Below are positions 25,388 through 62,222 of a stretch of 64,000 nucleotides of DNA, piece after piece. The stretch is from Bacillus sp. DTU_2020_1000418_1_SI_GHA_SEK_038 (lineage in GTDB: Bacteria > Bacillota > Bacilli > Bacillales > Cytobacillaceae). A program made the translations under genes and the position numbers. The stretch lies in assembly GCF_032341175.1 (NCBI RefSeq), contig NZ_CP135435.1, positions 1,674,001-1,738,000 of the forward strand, in the 5' to 3' direction. A model generated the notes under the pieces. The model was given only the letters and a program-made list of their open reading frames with translations, searched no databases and was not told where the DNA came from. Within the stretch, counting starts at the first letter, position 1. Every line of letters begins with the position of its first letter.

Positions 25388-25510
25388 GAAAAGCGGAGGC
25401 GCCTTGCTCACCCCCGACAAGCACAAGACGGGCCTTCCGGAAAGGTGTTCTTTACCTTTCTGGGAGGATCGGCTTGTGACCTCGAGGGGGTAGGCGCTGG
25501 AGCTAGACAG
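25388..25510 (+). repeat. Dispersed hairpin repeat, copy 1a (core module, plus orientation)
   Basis: This 123-bp element runs from GAAAAGCGGAGGCGCC to GGCGCTGGAGCTAGACAG. It folds into nested stems: terminal GGCGCC-like ends, CCCCC/GGGGG, and a long arm CACAAG...GGAAAGGT / ACCTTTC...CTTGTG with a 7-base loop. The same core occurs at 47665, 48268 and within 36244 and 61924. Confidence 0.85.
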
Positions 25511-25513
25511 AAC

Positions 25514-25692
25514 GAAAAGCGGAGGCGGCTCGTTCAGCCCCGACAAGTCCACCTCGAGGTCGACAAAACGCGACGTCCTCCCAAAAGCTCCGCTTTTGGT
25601 CGTGCGATGTGTCGCTGAAGTAGCTTTCCTTGTCCTGTCGCATTGTCGACACTAGTACGTCCTGTACATCGGGGCTAGCCGCTGCAGCTGGA
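25514..25692 (+). repeat. Dispersed repeat, copy 1b (module B, core hairpin deleted)
   Basis: A tandem partner of copy 1a that starts with the same GAAAAGCGGAGGCG end but lacks the long core hairpin. It carries module B: GTCGAC, GCGACGTCC, the stem CCAAAAGC-TCC-GCTTTTGG, TGTCGCATTGTCGAC and GTACGTCCTGTACATCGGGG. The right end is degenerate (GCTGCAGCTGGACA). Confidence 0.8.
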
Positions 25693-25707
25693 CATTGATT
25701 GACAATT

Positions 25708-25741
25708 GAGATAGCTCGAAGATAGGGCTATCTCTTTTTTA
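25708..25741 (+). terminator. Terminator after the oxidase genes and repeats
   Basis: GAGATAGC / GCTATCTC stem followed by T6. It separates the oxidase genes from sco. Confidence 0.8.
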
Positions 25742-25786
25742 TAAAAATCAAACAAAAGCAAAATAATGATTTGGGAAGTGATTTCC

Positions 25787-26419
25787 GTGATCAAAAACCG
25801 GCATAATACAATTGCTACCATCCTTGTATTATTGTTTGGCTGTGTGTTGTTTTTTATAGCGACAGATGGATTCCGAGCATTTACGGCAGAAACCGCGAGA
25901 GTGAATCAGCTGATGGAGGAAAAGCCCGTATTCCCTGATGTCACTTTAGAGGATAACAAAGGACGGAAATATCCGATTTCTGAGTTTGAAGATAAGTATA
26001 TATTCATTACATTTCTTTATACATCCTGTGCGACTGTCTGCCCTCAATTAGAAATGAATATGGCTCAAGTTTATGATTTGCTGCCAAGAAAATATATTGG
26101 AGAAGACATTGTTTTTTTGAGTATTAGCTTTGATCCGACTAGAGATGACCCAGCGACATTAGAAACATACAGAGAGGCTTTTAATAGCGATGGGGAAACT
26201 TGGAGGATGGCGAGAATACCTAATCAGGCTGAATTAGACTCTTTGCTGGAGAAGTTTGGCGTAATAGTAATTCCTGATGGGCTTGGGAATTTCACACATA
26301 ATTCAGCATTTTATTTAGTTGATAAAAAAGGCCGTTTAATCGATGTTATGGATTATACGGAGATTGAAGAAGCTGCTGCAAAGGTAACAAGCATTCTTGA
26401 AAATGAAGCGGGGGTGTAA
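25787..26419 (+). CDS. Sco family copper chaperone / thiol protein
   Basis: Membrane-anchored thioredoxin-fold protein of 210 residues. A membrane helix lies near residues 10-28. The copper/thiol site CATVC (Cys81, Cys85) and the distal His171 in THNSAF are all present. Sco proteins deliver copper to CuA of oxidase subunit II, so this probably matures the oxidase encoded just upstream. GTG at 25787 is my preferred start; the frame continues to an ATG at 25766. The next gene begins 3 bases after the stop, so the two are co-transcribed. Confidence 0.88.
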   Translation: MIKNRHNTIATILVLLFGCVLFFIATDGFRAFTAETARVNQLMEEKPVFPDVTLEDNKGRKYPISEFEDKYIFITFLYTSCATVCPQLEMNMAQVYDLLPRKYIGEDIVFLSISFDPTRDDPATLETYREAFNSDGETWRMARIPNQAELDSLLEKFGVIVIPDGLGNFTHNSAFYLVDKKGRLIDVMDYTEIEEAAAKVTSILENEAGV

Positions 26420-26422
26420 TTT

Positions 26423-26980
26423 ATGACACAAGTTTTCTATGCCTTTCTGTTATATATTTTCCTAATGCTTCCCCCTGTTGCTAATTTAGTGGAGTCAATT
26501 ATGATTACGCATATGCATATGCAAATGCCGTTGCTTGTTATCTCAGGATTTTTTATGGCACGCTTTTTTCTAATCCGATTTCCGCGTTTTTTCGAAAAAT
26601 GGAATAGCAATGGTATACCGGGAATTATTTTATTTATGATCATTGTTATATATTGGACAATACCAAGGACAATGGATGAGGCCTTGACGTTACAAAGTGT
26701 AGAGATTTTTAAATTTATCAGTTTACCTTTCTTGGCGGGAGTTCCACTTAGAGATAGTTGGAAAAAGCTCAGTTCGACAGGAAAAAACGTCATTATTATC
26801 ATTTTTACGATTAAGTATTTTGGGATGGGATTTTTATATATTTGGTCACCTGACCAATTATGCAACAATTATTTATTAATTGAACAATTAACCCTTGGTT
26901 GGGGGTTTTTGACGACTGCAATTGCACTGTTAATTTATTTGGTGTACAAACATTTTGTTGATCCTTCGCAATATGAATAG
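26423..26980 (+). CDS. Multi-pass membrane protein linked to the ba3 oxidase cluster
   Basis: Membrane protein of 185 residues with about six hydrophobic segments. Met/His-rich stretches are notable: the first loop reads MITHMHMQMP, and a later segment has WSPDQLCNNYLL. Such residues could bind copper or heme. Coupling to sco (3-base gap) suggests an oxidase assembly role; similar proteins accompany ba3 oxidases in other Bacillaceae as far as I recall. No exact family was assigned. Confidence 0.65.
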   Translation: MTQVFYAFLLYIFLMLPPVANLVESIMITHMHMQMPLLVISGFFMARFFLIRFPRFFEKWNSNGIPGIILFMIIVIYWTIPRTMDEALTLQSVEIFKFISLPFLAGVPLRDSWKKLSSTGKNVIIIIFTIKYFGMGFLYIWSPDQLCNNYLLIEQLTLGWGFLTTAIALLIYLVYKHFVDPSQYE

Positions 26981-27024
26981 AAGGAAGAAGGTGGAATTCA
27001 TTTTTGTAAACCATTGTAAAAGAT

Positions 27025-27073
27025 ACCCATAATCCAAGTGCATTTTTACAGCTTTGGGTTTTGGGTGTTTTTT
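27025..27073 (+). terminator. Terminator of the sco transcript
   Basis: ACCCATAATCCAAG pairs with CTTTGGGTTTTGGGT with few mismatches, followed by GTTTTTT. Confidence 0.75.
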
Positions 27074-27209
27074 GTCTAATGAAGGGGCTTTTAGTGTTTT
27101 AAAGCTTTTTCCTGTCAGAATCTGCAGTTATTTTACGAATAAAACTATCGTTCTATCCCTTTGTTTGTTGATAAAATGAGAATTATTAAGAAATGAAGGG
27201 GATGACAGA

Positions 27210-27866
27210 ATGAACAAGCTATTCATTAAAATTTTTCCAATAATTGTTGCGATAACTTTCACTTTTCCGGCATTAACGAAAGCAGAGGAGACTTTATCCA
27301 ACCGTGATGATGTCTTTGAATTTGTACAAGCTGCCTATCATGCTCAACTATCACTTGGAGAAAAACCTAGGGCAATGGATGAAATTGATAAAATACTGTC
27401 GCCATATTTTACTGAAGAAGCAAAAGGAATTTTTTTAGAAGAAAACCTTTTCTCTGAAAATGGTTTATTTATTACATATGGAACTGATTTTCCATTTTAT
27501 TATATTCCCTACTTTACCTATACTGATGATACGAAGCTTGTCTCTCAGGAAAATGAAATGTACCTTTTTGAGTTTTTCCCTGAGATGGATGAAGGTCCTG
27601 TTTCTTATGAGAGCCATTATGAAGGATTGTTATTAGCATACACTGTTGATGGATGGAGAATAGCTGAATTTCTTTATAATAATATTCCCGAGCAGGTAAT
27701 GCATCCAGAGAAGAAGCAAAAGGACTCACACTCAACCAGCATAGATCGTGAAGCCTATTATCAGAAAATAGTCCAGTCATCATTCCAGGTTGGCTTATGC
27801 ATGAATCCATTAGAGTTTTTAATTAAATATGGCGGTTATTGCTCAACTTTTATAAGTGGAAAATGA
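27210..27866 (+). CDS. Secreted protein of unknown function (possibly DUF3993)
   Basis: Protein of 218 residues with a cleavable signal peptide (cleavage likely after TKA near residue 25). The mature part has a helical start (RDDVFEFVQAAYHAQLSLGEKPR) and beta-rich centre with aromatic residues (LFITYGTDFPFYYIPYFTY). It resembles small Bacillus secreted proteins that I recall as DUF3993, with low certainty. The C-terminal extension contains two Cys residues. It is monocistronic. Confidence 0.6.
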   Translation: MNKLFIKIFPIIVAITFTFPALTKAEETLSNRDDVFEFVQAAYHAQLSLGEKPRAMDEIDKILSPYFTEEAKGIFLEENLFSENGLFITYGTDFPFYYIPYFTYTDDTKLVSQENEMYLFEFFPEMDEGPVSYESHYEGLLLAYTVDGWRIAEFLYNNIPEQVMHPEKKQKDSHSTSIDREAYYQKIVQSSFQVGLCMNPLEFLIKYGGYCSTFISGK

Positions 27867-27915
27867 GCAATTTAACAGAAATAAGTAGTTATTCTTTAAT
27901 CTCTAGTATCTCTTT

Positions 27916-28128
27916 TTACCTTTCTAAATCAAAACCGGTGATAACTTCTTCTCCAATTACGATAGTTGGAGTAGAAAATGATTGGTATTTATTGATTAAT
28001 TCATTTCTTGCCTTTTGATCTTTTTTAATATCTTTTGTGGTAAAAGAAAAGCTGTATTCACTTAAAAATCTTTTCGTTATTTCACAAGGCGGGCAATCCG
28101 GCTGTGTATAAATGGTAATTTCTTTCAT
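27916..28128 (-). CDS. Glutaredoxin / NrdH-like thiol protein
   Basis: Thioredoxin-fold protein of 70 residues with active site Cys12-Pro-Pro-Cys15. The cis-proline region STPTIVIGEEVITGFD is complete. It is a cytoplasmic dithiol reductant whose partner cannot be read from context. It faces the secreted protein gene convergently. Confidence 0.85.
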   Translation of the reverse strand: MKEITIYTQPDCPPCEITKRFLSEYSFSFTTKDIKKDQKARNELINKYQSFSTPTIVIGEEVITGFDLER

Positions 28129-28185
28129 TAAGGCTCCCTCACTTTCATTTCTATATTAGTGTAAAAGACAGGAGAATTTCAATCA

Positions 28186-28347
28186 ATGAAGCTTGAAACA
28201 ATAATGATGACATTCAGTTCATTGCCTTTAACACTTAATTTAGCCGTTTCCCAAAAGAAAAAAGAGAAAAATAATATTTTTTTATTGTACAATCAGCTTA
28301 CATTAATTTATGCTGTTAATATTGGTATGAAGAGGAATGAGACCTGA
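28186..28347 (+). CDS. Possible small protein (53 residues), weakly supported
   Basis: An ATG frame with AGGAG ten bases upstream encodes a peptide with a hydrophobic start (IMMTFSSLPLTLNLAVS), a Lys run (KKKEKNN) and a hydrophobic second half. I do not recognise it. It lies in an AT-rich gap where chance frames are common. Confidence 0.25.
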   Translation: MKLETIMMTFSSLPLTLNLAVSQKKKEKNNIFLLYNQLTLIYAVNIGMKRNET

Positions 28348-28436
28348 ATTTTCGAAATTTAGTTATTTAGGATAGAAACATGCCAAAAGAGAAACCTAAA
28401 TATAATGTTTAAGGTTTTTGTGAAAGGAGAGGGAGC

Positions 28437-28673
28437 ATGTCACAGCTTCAAGGGATATTAACACGTTTAAAAAACTTACAGGAACAATCAACAGGCGGAG
28501 AGCCAATGCAACGTTTTTTTGAGGTGAACGGCGAACGAAAATGTCAGGTAACCTACCAGCCAAAGAGTGAAATGTTTGAGCTGGAGGTCTATAATGAAAA
28601 GGAAAAACCTAAAAGGTATCAATTTGATAATATTGATATGATTACGATTGAAATTTTTGATCTAATTCAATAA
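28437..28673 (+). CDS. ykuJ: YkuJ family protein
   Basis: Protein of 78 residues matching the YkuJ family (79 residues in B. subtilis). It begins MSQLQGILTRLKNLQEQ and continues with beta strands (QRFFEVNGERKCQVTYQPKSEMFELEVY). A structure of the family is known, its function is not. ATG follows GGAGAGGGAG. In B. subtilis ykuK and ykzF follow; here darB is next after a terminator. Confidence 0.88.
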   Translation: MSQLQGILTRLKNLQEQSTGGEPMQRFFEVNGERKCQVTYQPKSEMFELEVYNEKEKPKRYQFDNIDMITIEIFDLIQ

Positions 28674-28680
28674 ACCATCT

Positions 28681-28710
28681 GAAAGGGAGCCAATTAAGGT
28701 TCCCTTTTTC
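28681..28710 (+). terminator. Terminator after ykuJ
   Basis: GAAAGGGAGCC / GGTTCCCTTTTTC stem with a T-rich 3' arm. Confidence 0.8.
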
Positions 28711-28808
28711 AAATCATTTTGAGGATAGTGGAACTTAATAGGAGCAACTAAATGAAAACTGTGATAAACTAAAATAGATTGATAATAATAATTTGAGGGG
28801 TTTCGGCG

Positions 28809-29255
28809 ATGATCAGTCTTTACAGCGGGGAGTTTTTAGAAAATAATATCCGTAATTTTATGATACCTTCAGAACGGGTAGCACATGTGCAAATTGGCAA
28901 TAATTTAGAGCATGCTCTTTTAGTGTTAACAAAAAGCGGCTACACGGCCATTCCTGTACTTGATCCGTATTATAAACTTCATGGCTTAATAAGTACCCCG
29001 TTAATCATGGACTCAATTCTAGGCCTTGAGAGAATTGAATTTGAACAGCTAGAAGAAAAGCGCGTAGAAGAAGTAATGAATCGGAAAATTCCAAGATTAA
29101 ACATTAATTCATCCATCCAGGATTCAGTTGCTTTATTAATCGACAATCCATTCCTATGCGTTGAGAATGAAGATGGTTTTTTTGAAGGAATATTTACACG
29201 AAGAACCATAATGATTGAGTTAAATAAACAAATTCGAAAAAATAGTAAAAACTAA
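28809..29255 (+). CDS. darB: c-di-AMP binding CBS protein DarB (CbpB)
   Basis: Protein of 148 residues made of two CBS domains (about 15-75 and 85-140), matching B. subtilis YkuL/DarB. In B. subtilis, DarB without c-di-AMP stimulates the (p)ppGpp synthetase Rel and pyruvate carboxylase. That is noteworthy since pycA is in this same window. Blocks MIPSERVAHVQIGNNLEHALLVL and YTAIPVLDPYYKLHGLIS are typical. ATG follows GAGGGG. Confidence 0.9.
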   Translation: MISLYSGEFLENNIRNFMIPSERVAHVQIGNNLEHALLVLTKSGYTAIPVLDPYYKLHGLISTPLIMDSILGLERIEFEQLEEKRVEEVMNRKIPRLNINSSIQDSVALLIDNPFLCVENEDGFFEGIFTRRTIMIELNKQIRKNSKN

Positions 29256-29256
29256 T

Positions 29257-29286
29257 GCTCCCTTTTAAGGGAGCTTGATTTTTTTT
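29257..29286 (+). terminator. Terminator after darB
   Basis: GCTCCCTT / AAGGGAGC stem directly after the stop codon, then TTGATTTTTTTT. Confidence 0.88.
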
Positions 29287-29348
29287 ACAGATAAGTACGT
29301 ATACTAAATTAATTATGGGGAGCGAAAAGATTCTAGGAGGATAATTGA

Positions 29349-30872
29349 TTGGAACAGGTTATTGAAAAATCATTCATACATAAAGATAAAAAACAAACAA
29401 GACGACCTTTAGTACTAGCTTCAGTCATGCTAGCTATGTTTATGGGGGCAATAGAGGCAACAATTGTGTCAACTGCAATGCCAGTGATTGTAGGGGATTT
29501 AGGTGGATTTTCTTTATATAGCTGGGTGTTTTCTTCATATTTACTGATGAATGCAGTGACTGTGCTTATTTATGGGAAGCTATCTGATCTATTTGGAAGA
29601 AAACCAATTTTAATTATAGGGATTATCATTTTCTTAATTGGCTCCATATTATGCGGATTTGCGCAGTCCATGAAAATGCTCATCATCTTTAGATTAATTC
29701 AGGGCTTTGGCGCAGGTGCTGTTATGCCGATTGCCACTACAATTGTCGGTGATATTTATACGAAGGAAGAGAGAGCCAAAATCCAAGGGTATTTATCAAG
29801 TGTATGGGGTATATCTGCTATTATGGGTCCAGCTGTCGGAGGAATTTTAGTTGAATATGTTAGCTGGCATTATGTGTTTTGGATTAATATCCCTCTTGGC
29901 ATTTTGGCCATTATTGGGATTGCGAAATTTCTTCATGAAAATATTGAAAAGAAAAAGCCTCAGATTGATTATATAGGTGCCTTTCTTCTGACGGTTTCCA
30001 TTTCATCATTAATGATTGTTCTTGTAGAAGGTGGAGTCAATTGGGCTTGGTCTTCTCCAAAGGCCATTAGCTTAATAGGCATCAGCTTACTAGCTTTCCT
30101 ATTATTTGTTATTCAGGAGAAAAGAACACCAGAACCAATGATGCCTTTCAGTATATGGAAAGAGCGTTCAATCCTTATCGCAAACTTAGCTTCCTTAACG
30201 ACTGGGGTTATTTTAATAGGGATATCGAGCTTTCTTCCGGCATTTGTACAAGGTGTGATGGAGCGCTCGCCCATTGTAGCTGGATTTACGTTAACAACCA
30301 TGTCTATTGGATGGCCACTCGCTTCATGGTCAGCAGGTCGATTATTGTTAAAAATCGGGTTTAGAAGCACATCAATTATCGGTGGTTTATCTCTCATTTT
30401 AGGATGTATTGTGTTTTCTACTCTTTCACCCGAGGCAGGACCGCTTTGGGCTGCATGTGGATCTTTCCTTGTCGGTGTTGGAATGGGCTTAACCTTAACG
30501 ACCTTTATTGTTTCCATCCAGAGTACTGTCAGCTGGCATCAAAGAGGAATAGCAACAGCTGCCAATATGTTTATGAGAAATTTAGGAAATACAATTGGAG
30601 CGGCCTTACTAGGCGGTATACTAAATAATCGCATTATGTTCTACTTTAAGGAAAAAGGGCAAGGGGCTGCAGAAGATTTAACAATTGACTCCACGAATAT
30701 TCTCTTAAATGAAGAGGAAAGAAATAAGCTTGCTGGAGGAGTAAAAGCATTGCTTCAAGATGGCCTTACTTTTTCTTTGCAATCCGTCTATTATACCGTG
30801 CTGATTTTTGCTGTGGTCAGCTTTGTCCTGATTATGTTACTTCCGAAAAAAGAACCAGGCTCTGCAAAGTAA
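29349..30872 (+). CDS. MFS drug exporter, DHA2 (14-helix) family
   Basis: Membrane transporter of 507 residues with about fourteen helices. Motif A is GKLSDLFGRKP, motif C is in MGPAVGGILVEY, and the block GFGAGAVMPIATTIVGDIY is typical of EmrB/QacA-type proton-drug antiporters. The start is TTG 29349, seven bases after TAGGAGG. No regulator gene of its own is adjacent; ccpC downstream has another role. The stop codon sits inside the loop of the terminator hairpin. Confidence 0.88.
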   Translation: MEQVIEKSFIHKDKKQTRRPLVLASVMLAMFMGAIEATIVSTAMPVIVGDLGGFSLYSWVFSSYLLMNAVTVLIYGKLSDLFGRKPILIIGIIIFLIGSILCGFAQSMKMLIIFRLIQGFGAGAVMPIATTIVGDIYTKEERAKIQGYLSSVWGISAIMGPAVGGILVEYVSWHYVFWINIPLGILAIIGIAKFLHENIEKKKPQIDYIGAFLLTVSISSLMIVLVEGGVNWAWSSPKAISLIGISLLAFLLFVIQEKRTPEPMMPFSIWKERSILIANLASLTTGVILIGISSFLPAFVQGVMERSPIVAGFTLTTMSIGWPLASWSAGRLLLKIGFRSTSIIGGLSLILGCIVFSTLSPEAGPLWAACGSFLVGVGMGLTLTTFIVSIQSTVSWHQRGIATAANMFMRNLGNTIGAALLGGILNNRIMFYFKEKGQGAAEDLTIDSTNILLNEEERNKLAGGVKALLQDGLTFSLQSVYYTVLIFAVVSFVLIMLLPKKEPGSAK

Positions 30873-30889
30873 TTGCAGAGCCTTTTTCG
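30858..30889 (+). terminator. Terminator overlapping the MFS stop codon
   Basis: AGGCTCTGCAA / TTGCAGAGCCT perfect stem; the TAA stop (30870-30872) lies in the 5-base loop. T5 follows. Confidence 0.88.
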
Positions 30890-30969
30890 TAATAAAATAA
30901 TTCATCAACAAAAATGAAACTTTAAACTATTTAGGTTATAGTATAAGAAAAAAAGAACGGAGTGAATAT

Positions 30970-31872
30970 ATGTCATCACTTTCTGAGTTTCACTTTCTTT
31001 CTGTCCTTGCTCAGGAAATGAATATGAGGAAGGCTGCAGAGAGATTATTTGTTTCACAGCCCGCTTTATCTCAACGCTTGCAAACGATTGAGAAGGAGTG
31101 GGGAGAAAAATTATTTGTCCGTTCTCAAAAGGGCTTATCTTTAACACCTGCTGGGGAGCTTGTCATAAAATTTATTAATGAGGTTATTACAAAAGAGGAA
31201 AAGGTTAGAGAATCCATCCATGCTCTCAATTCAGAAGTTCATGGTACATTAAAGATAGCTGTTGCATCCATTGTGGGGCAAAATTGGCTTCCACAAGTAT
31301 TAAAGAAATTCGTAACCCGCTACCCCCAAGCAAAAGTTTCCCTCCTGACCGGCTGGAGCAGCGAAATATTAAAATCGATATATGAAGATCAAGTACATAT
31401 TGGAATTATTCGGGGAACACCAGATTGGAAGGGGATAAAAATTCATCTTTTTAAGGACCCGCTTTATTTAGTAGATACTGAAATCACTTCACCTGAACAG
31501 ATCTTAAATACGGATAGGCCATTTATTCAATTTAAAAGTGATTCAAACTATTTTCAGGAAATTCAAGATTGGTGGCTGAGGACATTCAAAACAGCTCCAA
31601 AAAGGACAATAGTTGTTGATCAGATTGAAACATGTAAGCAAATGACATTCAACGGGATAGGTTATGCCATCCTGCCTGCCATTACTTTAAATGGAGCGGA
31701 GAAGAACATATTTAAGGTTCCATTATTGGATGAGCATGATCTTCCCTTACAACGGGATACATGGCTGCTTGGCTATGAATCCGCCTTCCAGCTCAAGCAA
31801 GTACAAGCCTTCGTTGAGTTAATAAAGGAATTTATCGAAGAAGAAGGAAATGAAGATAGGAGCAGTGAATAG
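30970..31872 (+). CDS. ccpC: LysR-family regulator CcpC
   Basis: Regulator of 300 residues: N-terminal winged HTH with RKAAERLFVSQPALSQRLQTIEKEWG and a C-terminal periplasmic-binding-like effector domain (from about 90). It follows B. subtilis CcpC closely, including WSSEILKSIYEDQVHIGIIRG and VDQIETCKQM. CcpC is the citrate-responsive repressor of citZ and citB. The gene lies in the ykuL-ccpC-ykuU order as in B. subtilis, though flavodoxin and dap genes found between in that species are missing here. Confidence 0.93.
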   Translation: MSSLSEFHFLSVLAQEMNMRKAAERLFVSQPALSQRLQTIEKEWGEKLFVRSQKGLSLTPAGELVIKFINEVITKEEKVRESIHALNSEVHGTLKIAVASIVGQNWLPQVLKKFVTRYPQAKVSLLTGWSSEILKSIYEDQVHIGIIRGTPDWKGIKIHLFKDPLYLVDTEITSPEQILNTDRPFIQFKSDSNYFQEIQDWWLRTFKTAPKRTIVVDQIETCKQMTFNGIGYAILPAITLNGAEKNIFKVPLLDEHDLPLQRDTWLLGYESAFQLKQVQAFVELIKEFIEEEGNEDRSSE

Positions 31873-32731: not shown

Positions 32732-32747
32732 TTAAGAGAATTTTATG

Positions 32748-32777
32748 AAAAGGCCTAACTTGATTGTTAGGTCTTTT
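32748..32777 (+). terminator. Hairpin between ykuU and ykuV
   Basis: AAAAGGCCTAAC / GTTAGGTCTTTT stem. The T tract is inside the arm, so read-through into ykuV is likely. Confidence 0.65.
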
Positions 32778-32822
32778 CTTGAAATATGATCGGATTTTTT
32801 TCTTAATAAGGGGGATAAACCA

Positions 32823-33278: not shown

Positions 33279-33287
33279 AGTGAAAAA

Positions 33288-33319: not shown

Positions 33320-33364
33320 GAGAATTAGCTCCGTAAAGCTTCATGCTAAAGCAGCGAACAACAC

Positions 33365-36243: not shown

Positions 36244-36546
36244 AACTGTCTAGCTTCAGCCCCCAGCCCCGATGTACAGGACGTACTAGTGTCGACAATG
36301 CGACAGGACAGGGAAAGCTTCGTCAGCGACACATCGCACGACCAAAAGCGGAGCTTTTGGGAGGATGTCGCGTTTTTGTCGACCTCGAGGTCATAAGCCA
36401 ATCCGTCATGAAGGTTAAAGTGCAACCTTCCTGCCGGCTCGTCTTATGCTTGTCGGACTTGCACAGGATGTGCTGACATCGATGTTCGCCACAGGACGTG
36501 GCGGTCTTTAATCGATGTTCCCTGTCAGGGCGCTTCCGCATTTCTT
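36244..36546 (-). repeat. Dispersed repeat, copy 2 (core plus modules B and C', minus orientation)
   Basis: A 303-bp composite copy. Read on the minus strand it has the left end GCGGAAGCGCC, an extra module C' with hairpins (CCGCCAC-GTCC-TGTGGCG between two ATCGAT sites), the core hairpin, module B, and the right end CTGAAGCTAGACAG. In the core the outer pair CACAAG/CTTGTG of other copies is CATAAG/CTTATG, and GAAAGGT/ACCTTTC is GAAGGTT/AACCTTC: compensatory changes. Confidence 0.85.
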
Positions 36547-47610: not shown

Positions 47611-47664
47611 CCATCCCCCCATTTTTTCAAAAGATAAGAAAGTATAACTTTTCTCGAATTTGAG

Positions 47665-47790
47665 AACTGTCTAGCTCCAGCGCCTACCCCCTCGAGGTCA
47701 CAAGCCAATCCTCCCAGAAAGGTAAAGAACACCTTTCCGAGAGGCTCGTCTTGTGCTTGTCGGTGGTGGGCAAGGCGCTTGCGCTTTTCT
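47665..47790 (-). repeat. Dispersed hairpin repeat, copy 3 (core only, minus orientation)
   Basis: A 126-bp core copy running CTGTCTAGCTCCAGCGCC to GGCGCTTGCGCTTTTCT on the plus strand. It lies between two divergent genes. It is very similar to copies 1a and 4, with most differences in loops or as stem-preserving changes. Confidence 0.88.
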
Positions 47791-48267: not shown

Positions 48268-48392
48268 ACTGTCTAGCTTCAGCGCCTACCCCCTCGAGGT
48301 CACAAGCCAATCCTCCCAGAAAGGTAAAGTACACCTTTCCGTGAGGCTCGTCTTGTGCTTGTCGGGGGTGGGCAAGGCGCTTCCGCTTTTCT
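48268..48392 (-). repeat. Dispersed hairpin repeat, copy 4 (core only, minus orientation)
   Basis: A 125-bp core copy, same orientation as copy 3 about 600 bases upstream and nearly identical to it. It ends three bases before the first CcpN box of the SR1 promoter. Confidence 0.88.
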
Positions 48393-48443: not shown

Positions 48444-48449
48444 GTAATT

Positions 48450-48681
48450 AATGATGATAGAGCGTTTTCAAATTGATTACAAAGGGGAACGAAAGAATGG
48501 GTACAATTGTATGCCAGGCATGTAATTCTACAATTGATTATTTCGAGGATGAGAAAGTAACAGTCCTATACTCCAAAGCAGATTGCAGCTGCTGTGAAGA
48601 AAGCCATCATAAAGATGAAGTAAAATAATAAAATATGTATATAAATAAACCTTCCCAAATGTAAATTTGGGAAGGTTTTTC
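48450..48681 (+). ncRNA. sr1: SR1-like dual-function regulatory RNA
   Basis: Predicted RNA of about 230 bases from a start near 48450 to the terminator AACCTTCCCAAAT / ATTTGGGAAGGTT with T5 (48648-48678). It encodes SR1P and lies upstream of speA between the pdh region and speA, as SR1 does in B. subtilis. There SR1 also pairs with ahrC mRNA to block translation of the arginine regulator. The pairing region was not checked here. Confidence 0.75.
48497..48628 (+). CDS. sr1P: GapA-binding peptide SR1P
   Basis: Peptide of 43 residues starting MGTIVCQACNSTIDYFEDEKVTVLY, the hallmark of SR1P. Two Cys pairs (CQAC and CSCC) suggest a zinc knuckle. In B. subtilis SR1P binds GapA and promotes its interaction with RNase J1, which links it to rnjA in this window. 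ATG 48497 follows AAAGGGG by nine bases. Confidence 0.9.
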   Translation: MGTIVCQACNSTIDYFEDEKVTVLYSKADCSCCEESHHKDEVK

Positions 48682-53892: not shown

Positions 53893-53893
53893 A

Positions 53894-56097: not shown

Positions 56098-56121
56098 AAA
56101 ACTTTTAAGGGGGAGAAGAAA

Positions 56122-56439
56122 ATGGTTGATATAAATGAACGGCTGTCTTTTTTCGCTGCTTTATTTAAAGTGCAAGAAAATTCAAGCTTAGGAATGTGGA
56201 TGTTATATTTGACCATTATATTGCTCTGTATTATTGTATTTAAATTAGGTTTTGCGAAAAAATTGCCGTTAGCAAAATCGGCTATTATCTATCTCTTTCT
56301 TATTCTAGGGTGTACAGTTCTAACCTTTTTTGCAGTGTTTCTTCCAATAACTGAAGGATTAGTTGTTGCAGCATTAATCTTAATCATCTACAAAATCCGT
56401 CTTCATCAGTCAAAAAAGCAAGAAGGAAAACAGATGTAG
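56122..56439 (+). CDS. ylaH: YlaH family membrane protein
   Basis: Three membrane helices in 105 residues ([47 protein letters not shown]) and a basic C-terminus. It matches B. subtilis YlaH in size and place directly after typA (24 bases), so it is probably co-transcribed. Function unknown. Confidence 0.88.
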
Positions 56440-56454
56440 GATGGAGTGGATAAT

Positions 56455-56745
56455 ATGAGATCTTTACAGGATAATTTGTATAATTGGCTAACGATTAAAG
56501 TTGTCAGTTTGGAACGGCCTGATGATACGGCAGCAGCTGATACAGTAAAAATGTTTGAGGAAATGCTAATTGATGAACACCGACTTTCAAATATTGAGAT
56601 TGAGACAGATGAAATGATGTACTATGTTCACTTTGATCAAGACGGAGAAAGAAAAAAATCCCGTTTCCCAAGAGAACTTATTGAAGTCATGCTGAATCAG
56701 ATAAAATCGGAACCTGAAAAATATGTAAACTACCCGGATGAGTAG
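56455..56745 (+). CDS. Hypothetical protein downstream of ylaH
   Basis: Acidic soluble protein of 96 residues: a helix (MRSLQDNLYNWLTIKVVSLERPDD), then EMMYYVHFDQDGERKKSRFPRELIEVMLNQIKSEPEKYVNYP. The alpha/beta pattern suggests a small globular domain. No family recognised. ATG 56455, eight bases after GGAG, is preferred over an in-frame GTG at 56446. It probably ends the typA-ylaH transcript, closed by a hairpin at 56757-56789. Confidence 0.75.
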   Translation: MRSLQDNLYNWLTIKVVSLERPDDTAAADTVKMFEEMLIDEHRLSNIEIETDEMMYYVHFDQDGERKKSRFPRELIEVMLNQIKSEPEKYVNYPDE

Positions 56746-56756
56746 GATTTAAATGA

Positions 56757-56789
56757 CAAAAGAGGGGGGCTATGTGCCTCCCTCTTTTG
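56757..56789. terminator. Terminator hairpin before repeat copy 5
   Basis: CAAAAGAGGGGGGC / GCCTCCCTCTTTTG stem with a 5-base loop. A-rich on the left and T-rich on the right arm. Confidence 0.75.
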
Positions 56790-56792
56790 AAT

Positions 56793-56866
56793 TGTCTAGC
56801 TCCAGTGCCTTCCCCCAACGTACAGGACGTACTAGTGTCGACAATGCGACAGGGGATCGCGTTTTT
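56793..56866 (-). repeat. Dispersed repeat, copy 5 (truncated, minus orientation)
   Basis: Keeps the right end (TTGTCTAGCTCCAGTGCC on the plus strand) and the outer part of module B (GTACAGGACGTACTAGTGTCGACAATGCGACAGG in two stretches), then jumps to TCGCGTTTTT. The B centre, the core hairpin and the left end are gone. It reaches to within five bases of the ylaI stop codon. Confidence 0.8.
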
Positions 56867-56870
56867 CTTG

Positions 56871-57071
56871 TTACCATTCTTCTTCTTTCACTTTGCTTTG
56901 GTATAATTTAAAGTTGCCGGTTTCCATTCTTTTTTGTGTATTTGCTGTTATTCTAGCTTCGCAATCCTTGCACATATAAGTATGTATCGGCCTGTTTCTA
57001 AGTCTTTTTGCTTGAAAAGATTGATCTTCAATGGATTCAATTTTATCACATAAAACACATTTGACTCTCAT
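56871..57071 (-). CDS. ylaI: YlaI, zinc-ribbon protein (DUF2197)
   Basis: Protein of 66 residues with two Cys pairs, CVLC (near residue 5) and CKDC (near 35), forming a zinc ribbon; the stretch AKRLRNRPIHTYMC is typical of YlaI. Function unknown; the basic surface may bind nucleic acid. Its 3' flank is repeat copy 5. Confidence 0.88.
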   Translation of the reverse strand: MRVKCVLCDKIESIEDQSFQAKRLRNRPIHTYMCKDCEARITANTQKRMETGNFKLYQSKVKEEEW

Positions 57072-57270
57072 AGCGTACTCCTCAAATAAATTTTCATAAT
57101 GCTTTAACGATGTTCATGCAATTCTTATTCGTTGGTAAGTTTATTAATACCTATTATAATTATATATGATGTGTATCCTTAATTCGACTTCTTTTCGAGT
57201 GTTAATAATATGTATCTGTTGAAAGTTAAGGATGGGCATAATATGATGTAGAATGAAAGGAGGGATTAGT

Positions 57271-57726
57271 ATGGCAAATCAAGTAGAACCTAAATTAATT
57301 AAACCACTTTTTGATGCTCTTCAGCAAGAAAGGTTTGTCACGTTAGCGACAATTGATTACGAAACGGGCGGACCAAATGTTAGCGCCATTTCATGGGTAC
57401 TGGCTAAAGATGAAGGGGCCATTCTTTTTGCGGTTGATAATCGTTCAAGAATTGTTCAAAACATTAAAGAGAACAAAAAGGCAGTATTAAATTTAATAGC
57501 AAATGAATCTACATATTCCATAACAGGAGATGTTACTGTTAAGGAGGAAAAGCTTGATGGCGTTCCATTAAAGCTTGCTCTTTTAGAGCTGTCTATTCAT
57601 GAAGTGAGAGATGTCATGTTCTACGGTTCAAAGATTGTTTCTGAGCCTCAATATGACAAAACATATGATAAAGATGCAGCTGCACGCCTAGATAAACAGG
57701 TAATGGATGCAATGAAAAAGGCCTAG
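57271..57726 (+). CDS. Pyridoxamine 5'-phosphate oxidase family protein
   Basis: Split-barrel flavin-binding protein of 151 residues. Blocks RFVTLATIDYETGGPNVSAISWVLA and ILFAVDNRSRIVQNIKENKKAVLNLI fit the PNPOx-like fold, probably binding FMN, heme or F420-like cofactor; the reaction is unknown. ATG 57271 follows AAAGGAGGG by five bases; six upstream codons overlap the ribosome site. Confidence 0.85.
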   Translation: MANQVEPKLIKPLFDALQQERFVTLATIDYETGGPNVSAISWVLAKDEGAILFAVDNRSRIVQNIKENKKAVLNLIANESTYSITGDVTVKEEKLDGVPLKLALLELSIHEVRDVMFYGSKIVSEPQYDKTYDKDAAARLDKQVMDAMKKA

Positions 57727-57751
57727 TCGAGTGACTAGCCTTTTTTGCATT
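57716..57751 (+). terminator. Terminator
   Basis: AAAAGGCCTAGTC / GACTAGCCTTTTTT stem overlapping the stop codon region. Confidence 0.85.
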
Positions 57752-57799
57752 TTATGAAATGTTGACTATGTCTATCGATCGATCTGCCCTCTGTTTTAC

Positions 57800-58399
57800 T
57801 TAATCATGCTTATCTTTATAATGATTAGACTGCTCTTCCTGTTGCTTTTCAAGTTTTTGTTTTTCTGGATTATTTAAATTCTTTTTCTGATCTTCTGGAC
57901 CATCTTTTGGATTTGGATCAATAATATCTGCAGGAATTTCTGGCATTAATCGGCCGGTAATATCTGCTAACTCATTCATAATTCCCTGAATAGGCTTCCC
58001 AACTTGAATATCTTCTGAAATTTCTCTTAAACGTGCAGTTATATCAGGGTCAGCAATGATAATGGCCCTAGCTCCATCAGGATCGTTTTTTAAGCTCTCT
58101 GCTACTGAATATTTAATGGCACCTACCTCAGATCTCTCCAGGTTTTTGTTAACATCAATTCCAACTATTGCATATCGGCCCAAAACAACCGCAGTTGCAT
58201 CGTTTACATTAGGAATGCTCGTGGCGAGATTTACGAGCCGCTGGGAGATTTGCTGCCCGGTTGTTCGATCAACCTCTTGTATCGTACTGTTTTTGACATT
58301 TACTAAATTTTGATTTTGATTTTCTTGGCTTTGATTATTGTTGATCCCGCATCCCGCTATCAGCACGACAGCAAGTCCGATAAATAGCTGCTTTTTCAA
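57800..58399 (-). CDS. ylaJ: YhcN/YlaJ family sporulation lipoprotein
   Basis: Lipoprotein of 199 residues with lipobox IAGC and Cys17. An Asn/Gln-rich linker follows, then the YhcN/YlaJ domain (about 45-150: LATSIPNVNDATAVVLGRYAIVGIDVNKNL) and a Lys/Gln/Glu-rich tail. In B. subtilis the family is made in the forespore and ends up in the inner spore membrane. TTG start at 58399 follows AGGAG by ten bases. Divergent from ylaK. Confidence 0.88.
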   Translation of the reverse strand: MKKQLFIGLAVVLIAGCGINNNQSQENQNQNLVNVKNSTIQEVDRTTGQQISQRLVNLATSIPNVNDATAVVLGRYAIVGIDVNKNLERSEVGAIKYSVAESLKNDPDGARAIIIADPDITARLREISEDIQVGKPIQGIMNELADITGRLMPEIPADIIDPNPKDGPEDQKKNLNNPEKQKLEKQQEEQSNHYKDKHD

Positions 58400-58599
58400 T
58401 TTTCACCATCTCCTATACTTAGGCTTTAGCCTCCAATGCTTTAGGCAATTTAATTCAGAAGCTAAAGCATTATTAAAGGAATCATTAACGGTTATTGTGC
58501 AAAATTTCGTCTATCTTTATACGGTAAAACATATATTTTACCAAAGTTCCATTCGTTCCACTGTTTAATAGAGACCTAAGAGGAGCAGGAGGCATTAGA

Positions 58600-59928
58600 T
58601 TGAGTAAAATATACGTGTTAGATACAAATGTCTTGTTACAAGATCCGCATTCGATTTTTTCCTTTGAAGAAAATGAAGTGGTTATTCCAGCCGTGGTACT
58701 AGAGGAAGTTGATTCGAAGAAAAGATACATGGACGAGATTGGCAGGAATGCAAGACACGTATCAAGGCTGATTGACAGCTTTAGAGGTACAGGAAAACTT
58801 CATGAACGAATTCCTCTTGAAAATGGCGGAAGCTTGCGAATTGAATTAAACCATCGTTCATTTCAACAGTTACAGGATATTTTTATTGAAAAGACGAATG
58901 ATAACCGAATATTGGCTGTTGCAAAAAATTTATCTTTAGAGGAAGAAGCAAAGGAAGATGGAAAAACAGTCATAATCGTAAGTAAGGATGCACTCGTAAG
59001 GGTTAAAGCAGATGCAATCGGTCTAATTAGTGAAGATTACCTTAGTGATCGGGTTATTGAGAATGATCACGTATATACTGGATTTTTGGAAGTATATATC
59101 GCGAAGGATACGTTGAACCGTTTTTATGAGAAGGGTGAACTTCACATTTCAGAGGTGGTCACTTTTCCAGTATTCCCTAACCAATTTCTTGTAATGAAAG
59201 ATGCATTAGGATCATCTTCGTCAGCCTTAGGAATTGTTGATAAAACGAGAAAAAAAATTAAGAAACTTATATTTGATTATGACCATATATGGGGAATTAA
59301 ACCGAGAAATGTTCAGCAAACGATTGCCATGGAGCTTCTTTTAAGAAAGGATTTACCCCTGGTTACCTTAACAGGGAAGGCAGGAACGGGAAAAACACTT
59401 ATTGCCCTTGCCTCTGGACTTATGCAGACTGAAGATTATGGATATTATAAAAAGCTGCTTGTAGCCCGCCCGATTGTACCAGTTGGAAAGGATCTAGGCT
59501 TTCTTCCTGGTGAAAAAGAGGAAAAGCTTAGGCCGTGGATGCAGCCGATTTTTGATAACCTGGAATATTTATTTAATGTTAAAAAGCCTGGGGAATTGGA
59601 TGCGATTTTGGCAGGGATGGGCTCTATTGAAGTTGAGGCATTAACTTATATTAGGGGGAGAAGCATTCCAGATCAATACATCATCATTGACGAAGCACAA
59701 AACTTGACGAAACACGAGGTCAAAACGATTCTTACACGCGTAGGAGAGGGAAGTAAAATAGTGTTAATGGGAGATCCTGAACAAATTGATCACCCATATT
59801 TGGATGCTTATAATAATGGATTAACATACGTGGTAGAGAGGTTCAAGGACCAAACAATCGCGGGTCATGTTAAGCTGATTAAAGGAGAAAGATCTGGACT
59901 TGCACAATTAGCAGCTGATTTATTATAG
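58600..59928 (+). CDS. ylaK: PhoH2-type PIN-PhoH ATPase YlaK
   Basis: Protein of 442 residues: an N-terminal PIN ribonuclease domain (YVLDTNVLLQDP with the first acidic residue) and a C-terminal PhoH ATPase/helicase domain with Walker A GKAGTGKT and Walker B YIIIDEAQNL. PhoH2 proteins unwind and cut RNA. In mycobacteria they are paired with an antitoxin-like gene; none is adjacent here. TTG start at 58600 behind AGGAGG. Confidence 0.92.
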   Translation: MSKIYVLDTNVLLQDPHSIFSFEENEVVIPAVVLEEVDSKKRYMDEIGRNARHVSRLIDSFRGTGKLHERIPLENGGSLRIELNHRSFQQLQDIFIEKTNDNRILAVAKNLSLEEEAKEDGKTVIIVSKDALVRVKADAIGLISEDYLSDRVIENDHVYTGFLEVYIAKDTLNRFYEKGELHISEVVTFPVFPNQFLVMKDALGSSSSALGIVDKTRKKIKKLIFDYDHIWGIKPRNVQQTIAMELLLRKDLPLVTLTGKAGTGKTLIALASGLMQTEDYGYYKKLLVARPIVPVGKDLGFLPGEKEEKLRPWMQPIFDNLEYLFNVKKPGELDAILAGMGSIEVEALTYIRGRSIPDQYIIIDEAQNLTKHEVKTILTRVGEGSKIVLMGDPEQIDHPYLDAYNNGLTYVVERFKDQTIAGHVKLIKGERSGLAQLAADLL

Positions 59929-59939
59929 CACCAGCATGA

Positions 59940-59965
59940 AAAAGGGGCGGAATTATCGCCCCTTC
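59940..59965. terminator. Bidirectional terminator
   Basis: AAAGGGGCG / CGCCCCTT stem between convergent ylaK and ylaL. Confidence 0.8.
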
Positions 59966-59973
59966 CGCAGGGA

Positions 59974-60474
59974 TTACCTGATCTTCAAAGCCTTAACTTT
60001 TTTTATTGGGTTATCTTTATTTCTTCCATCTCCATAATAAACATAAACCGGACCATCCTCTTTTAAAGGCTTGCCATTAATGGAAAAGCCAAGAACTAGC
60101 TCCATGCCCTCATGAAGGGGCATACTTATCTCTCCTTCTTCTTCACTTACAATAATGAGTGTGGCCGCATCTCTTTCAGGTTCTGCATTTTGGATAAATG
60201 GTTTTAAAGGGATGCCAAAAGTTCCATTCAATACTTTTTCCTTTTCAAATTTCTTCTCAGTTTTTAAAGTCGGAGGATAAATCGCGCCTTCCATAATTTC
60301 TCTATCCCAATGCTTGGAGATTGATTTTGTGTATTCTTCAAGAGCGTCATGAATTTCTTTATCCGTGTCAAAAAAAGACAGCAAATCAACTCGCCGATCA
60401 TCAAATATCCAAACCCCAGGATCAAGTGTAATCGAATATTTAACATTCCCGCTTAACGAAATAATATTTTCCAT
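59974..60474 (-). CDS. ylaL: YlaL family protein
   Basis: Soluble protein of 166 residues in the place of B. subtilis ylaL. It has a beta-rich start (IISLSGNVKYSITLDPGVWIFDDRRVDL) and a C-terminal half with IIVSEEEGEISMPLHEGMELVLGFSINGKPL. I do not know the function. ATG follows TAGGAGG. Confidence 0.75.
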   Translation of the reverse strand: MENIISLSGNVKYSITLDPGVWIFDDRRVDLLSFFDTDKEIHDALEEYTKSISKHWDREIMEGAIYPPTLKTEKKFEKEKVLNGTFGIPLKPFIQNAEPERDAATLIIVSEEEGEISMPLHEGMELVLGFSINGKPLKEDGPVYVYYGDGRNKDNPIKKVKALKIR

Positions 60475-60620
60475 TAATAATTCCTCCTAAAAAGGGCAAA
60501 AAACTTATTTACAAACGTAAGTATACAGATTATTGATGGAATTGTCATACTTTCACCGAAATGATAAAATGGAAATTCCAGCATCAACCAAAATATCACC
60601 AATGTTTGGGGGAAGTTCCG

Positions 60621-61550
60621 TTGGCATGCCGAACAAATGAAGACTTACAAAGAATTATAAATAAAGTTTTGTCATTAACAGAGGAAGGAAAGGTAGCGGA
60701 TTATATTCCAGCGCTCGCCAAGGCAAATAAGAATGATTTATCAGTTGCCATCTTTAAAAGGAATAATGAATGTCTCTATGCTGGTACTTACACGAAACGA
60801 TTTACGTTGCAGAGCATCTCTAAGGTCCTTGTATTGGCACTTGCCTTACAAGACAGAGGTGTTGATTATGTGTTTGAAAGAGTCGGAATGGAGCCGACTG
60901 GGGATCCTTTTAATTCTATTTCAAAGCTTGAAACCTCTATTCCATCAAAGCCATTAAATCCGATGATCAATGCTGGTGCTCTTGCTGTTACAAATATGAT
61001 AAAAGGGGAAAATGAAGCTGAAAGATGGGAGAGAATCCTTCGTTTTGTCCAATGTTTAGGGAACAAGAAGGATCTTACATATGACGAGGAAGTGGCGGCA
61101 TCTGAGCTGGACACCGCATGGCTCAATCGATCACTATGCTATTTTATGAAGCAGCATAAAGTGATTGAAGGAGATATTGAAGATTTAATGATGCTCTATA
61201 CTAAACAATGTGCCATCGAAATGAATTGTTTTGAATTATCTAGGATAGGAGCGGTTTTTGCCTTAAATGGACTTGACCCTGAAACAGGTGAAAGGCTTTT
61301 GCCTTTAGAAATTGCAAGGATTTGCAAAACCTTTATGGTCACTTGCGGAATGTATAATGCTTCAGGCGAATTCGCTATAAAAGTAGGAATTCCAGCGAAG
61401 AGTGGAGTTTCCGGAGGCATTCTTGCTGTCGTTCCTGAGAAATACGGGATAGGTATATTCGGTCCTTCATTAGATGAAAAAGGAAACAGCATTGCAGGCA
61501 TTAAGCTGTTAGAGGAACTCGCCGTGCAATATGATTTTAGTATATTTTAA
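60621..61550 (+). CDS. glsA: Glutaminase GlsA (YlaM type)
   Basis: Enzyme of 309 residues hydrolysing glutamine to glutamate and ammonia, with a beta-lactamase-like fold. The catalytic Ser is in LQSISK (SxxK), and the blocks KPLNPMINAGAL and CGMYNASGEFA are typical. TTG 60621 behind GGGGGAAG is the start, giving exactly the length of B. subtilis YlaM; the frame is open 20 codons further to an ATG at 60561 that lacks a ribosome site. Confidence 0.93.
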   Translation: MACRTNEDLQRIINKVLSLTEEGKVADYIPALAKANKNDLSVAIFKRNNECLYAGTYTKRFTLQSISKVLVLALALQDRGVDYVFERVGMEPTGDPFNSISKLETSIPSKPLNPMINAGALAVTNMIKGENEAERWERILRFVQCLGNKKDLTYDEEVAASELDTAWLNRSLCYFMKQHKVIEGDIEDLMMLYTKQCAIEMNCFELSRIGAVFALNGLDPETGERLLPLEIARICKTFMVTCGMYNASGEFAIKVGIPAKSGVSGGILAVVPEKYGIGIFGPSLDEKGNSIAGIKLLEELAVQYDFSIF

Positions 61551-61640
61551 AAGTATTCAATCCTTATTATTCTTGCTTTTTTATCATCTAACGTATAAAA
61601 TTTATAGATAGGATAATCGCTCGGAAATGGGGGATTGAAG

Positions 61641-61922
61641 TTGGCTTCAGAAATGATTATAGACCATAAGGAAAGAGCAAATGCCCTATTAAAGGCTGAC
61701 GCTGCTAAAATATTGAAATTAATTAAAGTGCAGATGGACAATCTTACCATGCCGCAATGCCCTCTATATGAAGAGGTGCTTGATACACAAATGTTTGGGT
61801 TGTCACGGGAAATAGATTTTGCGGTCCGTCTTGGCCTAATTGAACAGAAGGACGGAAAGGCAATTCTGGCTGAATTAGAAAAGGAACTTTCTATTCTGCA
61901 TGATGCTTCAGTAAGGAAATAA
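61641..61922 (+). CDS. ylaN: YlaN, essential iron-homeostasis protein
   Basis: Helical protein of 93 residues with the almost invariant block [40 protein letters not shown]. In B. subtilis and staphylococci YlaN binds iron and relieves Fur repression, and it becomes essential when iron is low. TTG 61641 follows GGGGGA by six bases; a TTG two codons earlier is too close. Repeat copy 6 starts one base after the stop codon. Confidence 0.92.
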
Positions 61923-61923
61923 A

Positions 61924-62222
61924 AAGAAATGCGGAAGCGCCTTCGGAACAATCAAAGGACAATTGTTCCTGCGATGAATACTCGCAGAAGCTATCCTTTG
62001 TGCTCACCCCCGACAAGCACAAGTCGAGCCTCCCGGAAAGGTGTGCTCTTTACCTTTCTGGGAGGATTGGCTTGTGACCTCGAGGTCGACAAAAACGCGA
62101 CGTCCTCCCAAAAGCTCCGCTTTTGGTCGTGCGATGATTACGCTTCCGAAGTCTTCCTTGTCCTGTCGCATTGTCGACACTTGTACGTCCAGTACATCGG
62201 GGGTAGGCGCTAAAGCTAGATA
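61924..62222 (+). repeat. Dispersed repeat, copy 6 (core plus modules B and C, plus orientation)
   Basis: A 299-bp composite. Left end AATGCGGAAGCGCC, an extra module C (hairpin GGAACAAT / ATTGTTCC), the core hairpin with CACAAG/CTTGTG, module B starting at CTCGAGGTCGAC and ending at GTACATCGGGGGTAGGCGC, and right end TAAAGCTAGATAG. Same module order as copy 2 on the opposite strand, but module C differs from C'. Confidence 0.85.

What the first reader, a model, noticed from the sequence alone, without database searches (positions are those of the whole stretch)
25388..62222. Dispersed hairpin repeat family with compensatory base changes in the core
Seven copies (25388-25510, 25514-25692, 36244-36546, 47665-47790, 48268-48392, 56793-56866, 61924-62222) share ends GAAAAGCGGAAGCGCC and GGCGCTGGAGCTAGACAG. 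The core folds into nested stems. The outer pair CACAAG/CTTGTG in copies 1a, 3, 4 and 6 becomes CATAAG/CTTATG in copy 2, and GAAAGGT/ACCTTTC becomes GAAGGTT/AACCTTC, so pairing is kept while sequence changes. This argues for selection on a structured RNA or on a DNA hairpin recognised by a protein. It encodes no protein, so it would be a non-autonomous mobile element or an unnamed structured RNA.
Basis: partly seen in the sequence, partly recalled or inferred. Interest (0 to 1): 0.75.

Follow-up and report, generated by a model that had tools for sequence, protein, structure and literature searches.

The report
Mobile hairpin repeats tracking DNA replication
A short, hairpin-forming DNA repeat found in many relatives of Bacillus is present in dozens of copies in this genome, keeps its fold while its letters change, has a copy at a spot that is empty in eleven related species, and mostly points one way relative to DNA replication in the two genomes examined closely, so it likely spreads as folded single-stranded DNA at the replication fork by an enzyme still to be found.

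Summary
The repeat is real. The host genome has 92 left-end and 73 right-end matches, and 29 contiguous copies show strong compensatory change (19 pairs, 92 cells, 98.1% paired, 0 of 500 shuffles). The copies are modular: a shared outer shell carries exchangeable inner hairpin modules. One module is the Rfam family Bacillaceae-1 RNA (window 36460-36527), so the RNA is not wholly unnamed. The shell occurs across Bacillaceae and relatives. Copy 47667-47789 is absent from the orthologous gap in 11 of 11 aligned congeners. No Y1 (RAYT/IS200) transposase is found in the host, and 20 RAYT-length genes elsewhere have no copy within about 2 kb.

The new observation is that orientation follows replication: 89 of 115 loci in two genomes carry the same strand in leading-strand sense, including 31 of 40 where gene direction is neutral. 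The strand with the better-kept fold is the other one, usually antisense to neighbouring genes. I therefore favour a DNA-level mobile hairpin moved at replication forks over a structured RNA; the mobilising enzyme is unknown. A published prediction that the reverse complement of Bacillaceae-1 binds CsrA stays open (PMC4333381).

The parts
25388..25510 (+). repeat copy, shell plus nested-stem core M1 (123 nt)
25514..25695 (+). second copy in tandem, 3 nt further on; shell with Bacillaceae-1-like twin-hairpin module interrupted by an inserted hairpin module; no M1 core
36246..36544 (-). composite copy: shell, Bacillaceae-1 module, M1 core (CATAAG/CTTATG form), second Bacillaceae-1-like module with an insertion in its loop
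36460..36527 (-). Rfam RF01690 Bacillaceae-1, 67.4 bits (gathering 35)
47667..47789 (-). repeat copy, shell plus M1; missing at the orthologous site in 11 aligned congeners
47625..47666 (-). 3' tail of this copy (outer limit approximate): mini-hairpin TTCTC..GAGAA and TTATACTTTCTTATC box
48269..48391 (-). repeat copy, shell plus M1, beside the SR1 sRNA gene; not seen in 11 aligned congeners, which have other sequence there
56793..56866 (-). truncated copy: right end and Bacillaceae-1-like hairpins only
61926..62222 (+). composite copy: shell, 5' inserted hairpin module, M1, Bacillaceae-1-like module with loop insertion

Best explanation
These are copies of a modular, non-coding, hairpin-forming DNA repeat that occurs in many Bacillaceae and relatives, has a copy here at a site that is empty in 11 aligned related species, and lies with the same strand in leading-strand sense at 89 of 115 loci in two genomes; it likely moves as a folded single strand captured at the replication fork by an enzyme not yet identified. 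Shown: the modular anatomy; the covarying fold; the empty site; the orientation bias, including 31 of 40 loci where the two flanking genes point in opposite directions; and that the strand with the better-kept fold (GAAAAGCG..CTAGACA) is mostly the leading-strand template and mostly antisense to its neighbours. Inferred: that the copy was gained rather than lost elsewhere, that the fold is selected as single-stranded DNA rather than RNA, that insertion itself sets the orientation, and that the twin hairpins with RTCCT loops and the 3' tail box are recognition sites. Untested: the mobilising protein.
For: Covariation, G000: 19 pairs and 92 cells changed on both sides, 0 of 500 shuffles; other species: 56 top-scoring matches, aligned to the model, keep the fold with many pair swaps (1683 Watson-Crick, 86 GU, 30 AC, 120 other cells). 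Strand of the fold: G.U on the shell-plus strand against A.C is 137:20 over 61 copies (95 of the 137 in two GU-consensus columns) and 86:30 over the 56 other-species matches, 44:27 there without GU-consensus columns; an internal loop GNA/GNA is kept (111 of 122 and 118 of 122 sides, N free); the predicted DNA fold is more stable on that strand in 55 of 57 copies. Orientation with replication: G000 left ends 27-/12+ on one arm and 16-/37+ on the other, p=3e-4, right ends 24-/8+ and 10-/31+, p=2e-5; merged loci 39 of 50 in G080 and 50 of 65 in G000, together 89 of 115, p=3e-9; convergent plus divergent gene pairs 31 of 40, p=7e-4; G080 arms agree with the GC skew of most fetched loci. Mobility: site empty in 11 of 11 aligned congeners; head-to-tail copies; complete second copies nested in the core in L219, L224, L231, L234, L246 (read by eye). 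3' tail box in 52 of 238 right ends against 16 reversed and 1-5 shuffled. No conserved sequence upstream of the 5' end beyond TAATAA in the 20 nt looked at.
Against: No transposase is identified; Y1_Tnp is absent from the host, so movement may be extinct there. In two further genomes, read from truncated hit lists, the trend is the same but not significant (G115 13:5, p=0.10; G009 22:14, p=0.24). Few tandem loci have genes on the lagging strand: 6 of 7 follow replication over both genomes (p=0.13), of which G000 gives only 2 of 3, though looser gene calls gave 6 of 7 in G000. Ori and ter in G000 were placed by half-length, in line with rRNA direction, not by a skew plot. G.U and GNA/GNA pairs occur in RNA too, so the fold data fix the strand, not the molecule, and G.U against A.C outside consensus columns is modest; for the Bacillaceae-1 module it is 11:6, inconclusive. 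Bacillaceae-1 lies in the transcribed sense between two tRNA genes in L055. The nested copies could descend from one ancestral event. Direct repeats at the borders show no overall excess (92 against 91.5 for 4 letters), but 11 copies have four flanking letters repeated flush with CTAGACA, against at most 10 in 100 re-pairings, so a very short duplication is not excluded.
Confidence: 0.5

Rival explanations
1. The element is mobile, but the orientation bias arises by loss: copies whose stable strand lies on the lagging-strand template fold and are deleted by replication slippage, leaving the opposite orientation.
For: The strand predicted more stable (55 of 57 copies by DNA parameters) is the leading-strand template at 89 of 115 loci, as this model predicts.
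Against: Imperfect hairpins of this length are not known to me to be strongly unstable (recalled); tandem arrays persist.
Confidence: 0.2
2. A structured RNA or 3'-UTR/terminator element: the strand read with the neighbouring genes folds, ends in CGCTTTTCTTATTA and affects termination or mRNA stability.
For: With tandem genes the shell-minus strand is co-transcribed in 90 against 35 loci, p=9e-7; divergent gene pairs are the rarest setting, 15 against 31 convergent (ORFs of 100 codons, 600 bp limit; 39 of 210 set aside). T-rich end with TAATAA flank.
Against: The better-kept fold is on the other strand. Where gene direction is neutral the bias remains, 31 of 40, and with lagging-strand genes 6 of 7 still follow replication, so gene co-orientation looks secondary.
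Confidence: 0.17
3. The Bacillaceae-1 module is a CsrA-binding RNA read from its reverse complement (two CAGGAY hairpins), and the repeats spread such sites.
For: Predicted from motif models in PMC4333381 (passages read), which also says the discoverers were not confident of the strand. Host has csrA. 95 of the 97 Bacillaceae-1 genomes have CsrA. In G000 that strand is in leading-strand sense for 18 of 25 hits (counts).
Against: CsrA is in 189 of 199 genomes, so the association is not significant (p=0.10). Two genomes with 5 and 6 Bacillaceae-1 hits lack CsrA (G052, G053; G053 has 7% contamination). The module occurs inverted in some shells and in the opposite sense in a tRNA operon. Most shells typed lack the module.
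Confidence: 0.1
4. REP/REPIN-type repeats moved by a RAYT or IS200/IS605 Y1 transposase.
For: Hairpin, intergenic, orientation tied to replication as reviewed for IS200/IS605 (PMC5371812, passages read); 17 of 27 searched genomes have Y1_Tnp.
Against: None in the host or in G199, G203, G204, G209, all four of which hold blastn matches to the repeat; no copies within about 2 kb of 20 RAYT-length genes.
Confidence: 0.06

Closest known systems
Bacillaceae-1 RNA, Rfam RF01690 (listed in PMC2864571, table passage read)
   Same: A module inside some copies, including window 36460-36527, matches it over its whole length; found in 97 of 199 genomes of the order.
   Different: Here it is one exchangeable part of a larger repeat with mobile behaviour, occurs in both orientations within the shell, and also sits in a second shell and between tRNA genes.
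IS200/IS605-type and REP/RAYT elements
   Same: Single-strand hairpins and orientation tied to replication (review PMC5371812, passages; further details recalled).
   Different: No Y1 transposase in the host and no copies beside 20 RAYT-length genes elsewhere.
BOX, RUP, ERIC and bcr1 dispersed stem-loop repeats (named in PMC2267715 and PMC3733652, passages read; details recalled)
   Same: Short, mostly intergenic, non-coding, folded, multi-copy; BOX is modular (recalled).
   Different: Sequences were not compared. This family spans many genera, whereas the bcr1 paper, seen only as a reference title, calls bcr1 specific to the B. cereus group.
Bhal-1 and Bhal-2 stem-loop families of B. halodurans (PMC2267715 table)
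   Same: Intergenic stem-loop repeats in a Bacillaceae member, 36 and 50 copies.
   Different: Sequences are not in the passages read, so identity could not be tested; they may be fragments of the same family. Bhal-2 is noted there as containing CRISPR repeats.

Membership tests
Bacillaceae-1 RNA (RF01690) | Covariance-model match above gathering score | tested here: met
   Module at 36460-36527, 67.4 bits against 35; 19 of 25 genome hits over the cut-off. In the window scan the shell and M1 core gave no Rfam match.
Bacillaceae-1 RNA (RF01690) | It is a transcribed sRNA | not testable with these tools
   No expression data; co-linear with tRNAs at L055 901-966.
REP/REPIN with RAYT | Y1 transposase gene in the genome | tested here: not met
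   0 matches to PF01797 in G000.
REP/REPIN with RAYT | RAYT gene flanked by the repeats | tested here: not met
   20 regions of 4.4-6.3 kb, 19 of them around 20 RAYT-length genes (178-288 codons; at least two more of that length, in G033 and G171, not fetched): no right end, no left end at 2 mismatches, no R1 match; only scattered 3-mismatch left ends and one 2-mismatch tail box in L334.
IS200/IS605-derived element | Orientation bias relative to replication | tested here: met
   89 of 115 loci.
IS200/IS605-derived element | Ends matching a Y1 insertion sequence | not tested
   No reference ends were compared; one IS200-length gene region (G080, L352) has no shell ends.
MITE moved by a DDE transposase | Target-site duplication | tested here: inconclusive
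   No overall excess of direct repeats over re-paired flanks for k=4-7 in 210 copies; 11 flush four-letter matches against at most 10 in 100 re-pairings.
MITE moved by a DDE transposase | Terminal inverted repeats | tested here: inconclusive
   Only AGCnnnAGCGCC near both ends (by eye); no inverted partner of the 3' tail box was seen at the 5' end (flank logo).
CsrA-sequestering sRNA | Paired GGA-loop hairpins on one strand | tested here: met
   Sequence of the window module on its reverse complement and of genome copies; reported before in PMC4333381. One search selected sequences by this pattern, so it is no test. Bacillaceae-1 modules only.
CsrA-sequestering sRNA | CsrA in every genome with the module | tested here: not met
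   G052 and G053 lack it, 2 of 97.

The most novel reading that the evidence does not exclude
The shell, its exchangeable modules and Bacillaceae-1 'RNA' are parts of a new, order-wide class of fork-captured single-stranded DNA hairpin elements that does not use a Y1 HUH transposase; the twin RTCCT-loop hairpins are the enzyme's recognition module, and a family catalogued as a small RNA is in truth mainly mobile DNA.
Probability: 0.2. Interest if true: 0.85.

Novelty: new variant of a known kind. Interest (0 to 1): 0.6.

Why it matters
About half of the sampled genomes of the order carry Bacillaceae-1 hairpins (97 of 199), catalogued as a small RNA without a known function. Tying the module to a mobile, replication-oriented repeat changes what experiments should ask, and gives many natural insertions for studying how hairpins enter or survive at replication forks. 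It would also point to an unknown mobilising enzyme that can be sought by genome comparison.

Tried and rejected
RAYT/IS200 mobiliser: rejected for the host and as a neighbour elsewhere (Rfam scan of the same regions gave no Bacillaceae-1). Plasmid or phage carriage of a 126-nt copy: no blastn match in either collection; the exact right end hit 11 viral contigs, none with a left end in reach, and L252 may be a real fragment cut by its contig edge. Autonomous element with these ends: 3 long left-right spans in the fetched loci, not followed by a family search. Target duplication: no overall signal, see the caveat under evidence against. Gene-direction bias as the main effect: first seen, then found secondary to replication. 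CsrA sponge: I first thought of it from recalled CsrB motifs, then found it published. A promoter in the 3' tail was considered by eye and dropped because its spacing from the shell varies. Literature: searches returned no paper in the held library that I recognised as describing the shell; one search asked for four of five terms and is weak; six end sequences gave three papers of unrelated title (listing only); no supplementary file was opened (the session allows none).

Rows dropped: L314 (G208, the twelfth congener) left out of the empty-site alignment because its contig starts at the site; loci without an ORF on both sides in reach were set aside (counts printed there); six such loci are kept in the totals and left out of the gene classes; one search uses G000 copies with both ends only, merges tandem copies, and leaves out one opposite-strand duplicate among the 73 G080 hits. 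Searches list part of their matches only. One search used a structure typed out of register and is superseded.
Full report
OBSERVATION. The window is G000:C1:1674001-1738000 of an unnamed 4.47 Mb genome. One (56793-56866) is a fragment with no left-end match, and the nested-stem core is in five of the seven. Genome-wide, the left end has 92 matches with up to 2 mismatches and the right end 73 (controls 2 and 0); 60 pair within 500 bp, 32 left and 13 right ends stand alone, and some lone left ends are probably chance. With looser end patterns, 68 distinct two-ended copies were typed in G000.

ANATOMY. A copy is an outer shell, GAAAAGCGNAAGCGCC ... GGCGCTGNAGCTAGACA, around inner modules. B1 is Rfam Bacillaceae-1 or a divergent form of it, two hairpins with RTCCT loops; it may lie 5' or 3' of M1, and is inverted in at least three copies (379703, 3460046, 3294177; by eye; the pattern typing finds two inverted cases in G000 and one elsewhere). 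X is a short hairpin module inserted near the 5' end or inside a B1 loop. M4 is an element of about 150 nt, with conserved GAGATAAAGGAAACACG and GATGTTGACTTATCG; Rfam scans of 12 loci holding it gave no match to it. By pattern typing, M4 is in 36 of 142 other-species elements, 2 of 68 in G000 and 3 of 15 typed in G080 (40 of the 142 and 7 of the 15 fell in 'other'). Some copies also have a 3' tail, a spacer of roughly 8-23 nt that can form a mini-hairpin, then TTATACTTTCTTATC, found in 52 of 238 right ends against 16 in reversed and 1-5 in shuffled tails. Minimal shells of 28, 46 and 72 nt exist.

FOLD. On 29 contiguous copies the consensus structure has 98.1% of cells paired, 19 pairs changed on both sides and 92 such cells; none of 500 shuffles reaches these and sliding the partner by 1-3 columns gives 3-7 pairs. 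The CCCC/GGGG tier is GGGG/CCCC in several copies. In other species the fold is kept with different stems (that alignment was fitted to the model). The fold is better kept on the GAAAAGCG strand: G.U exceeds A.C 137:20 in G000 (95 of the 137 in two GU-consensus columns) and 86:30 elsewhere, 44:27 without GU-consensus columns; the loop GNA/GNA is kept in 111 and 118 of 122 elements; that strand is predicted more stable in 55 of 57 copies by DNA and 51 of 57 by RNA parameters. For the B1 module alone the strand test is inconclusive, 11:6 over 37 sequences.

DISTRIBUTION AND MOVEMENT. Of 20 genomes chosen and searched with the M1 model, 15 have matches, up to 85. The copy at 47667-47789 is an insertion relative to 11 of 11 aligned congeners; the copy at 48269 is also not seen there, but the congeners have other sequence in its place. 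Copies form head-to-tail arrays, and five loci show a complete second copy nested in M1 at the corresponding place (read by eye). Direct repeats at the borders show no overall excess, with a slight excess of flush four-letter matches (11 against at most 10 in 100 re-pairings).

ORIENTATION. Copies first seemed to prefer one sense relative to genes (tandem pairs 90 against 35). Position on the chromosome explains this better. In G000 the shell-minus strand is in leading-strand sense at 50 of 65 merged loci, in G080 (another family of the order) at 39 of 50. Where flanking genes are convergent or divergent, so that gene direction is neutral, it is 31 of 40 (p=7e-4); where tandem genes are on the lagging strand, 6 of 7 follow replication and not the genes (2 of 3 in G000, 4 of 4 in G080). 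Two further genomes, from truncated lists, show the same trend without significance (13:5 and 22:14).

MECHANISM. The strand whose fold is better kept is therefore usually the leading-strand template and antisense to neighbouring genes, and no conserved sequence other than TAATAA was seen in the 20 nt upstream of its start. That fits selection on single-stranded DNA better than on an mRNA element. I infer that the element enters at replication forks as folded single strands. An alternative is that both orientations insert and one is lost by slippage. Y1 transposases were the obvious candidates and are not supported.

KNOWN AND NEW. Bacillaceae-1 is listed as a structured RNA (PMC2864571, table passage). 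PMC4333381 (passages) proposed that its reverse complement binds CsrA and says its discoverers were not confident of the strand. In my sample 95 of 97 Bacillaceae-1 genomes have CsrA, but so do 94 of 102 others, and two genomes have the module without CsrA. BSGatlas lists 8 Bacillaceae-1 structures in B. subtilis absent from earlier annotation (PMC8208703, passage). I found no paper in the held library that I recognised as describing the shell. New here, as far as those searches go: the shell, its exchange of modules, the placing of Bacillaceae-1 inside a mobile repeat, and the replication-linked orientation.

Noticed in passing
window 48447-48584 (+): SR1 dual-function sRNA (RF02376, 45.6 bits against gathering 45) directly beside the repeat copy 48269-48391; a short ORF there starts MGTIVCQACNSTIDYFEDEK (read off), which resembles SR1P as I recall it.
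   Followed up: no
window 15486-15531, 21570-21615, 24731-24760; G000 506977, 1824174, 3439417, 4074566: A second dispersed shell (TATCGCAGATTAACGGGCTGTAAG...) of different sequence; elsewhere in the genome it also encloses Bacillaceae-1 modules. The window places share its start only.
   Followed up: partly
L126, L095, L136, L139, L180 and other loci: Module M4 inside the same shell, with conserved GAGATAAAGGAAACACG and GATGTTGACTTATCG, 24 distinct sequences aligned, 38 predicted pairs (13 with two or more Watson-Crick types), no Rfam match in 12 loci scanned.
   Followed up: partly
L055 901-966: A Bacillaceae-1 module lies between two tRNA genes downstream of rRNA genes, on the strand of the tRNAs.
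   Followed up: partly
L219, L224, L231, L234, L246: Complete second repeat copies nested at the corresponding point of the M1 core, similar to each other and in the same orientation as the outer copy (by eye).
   Followed up: partly
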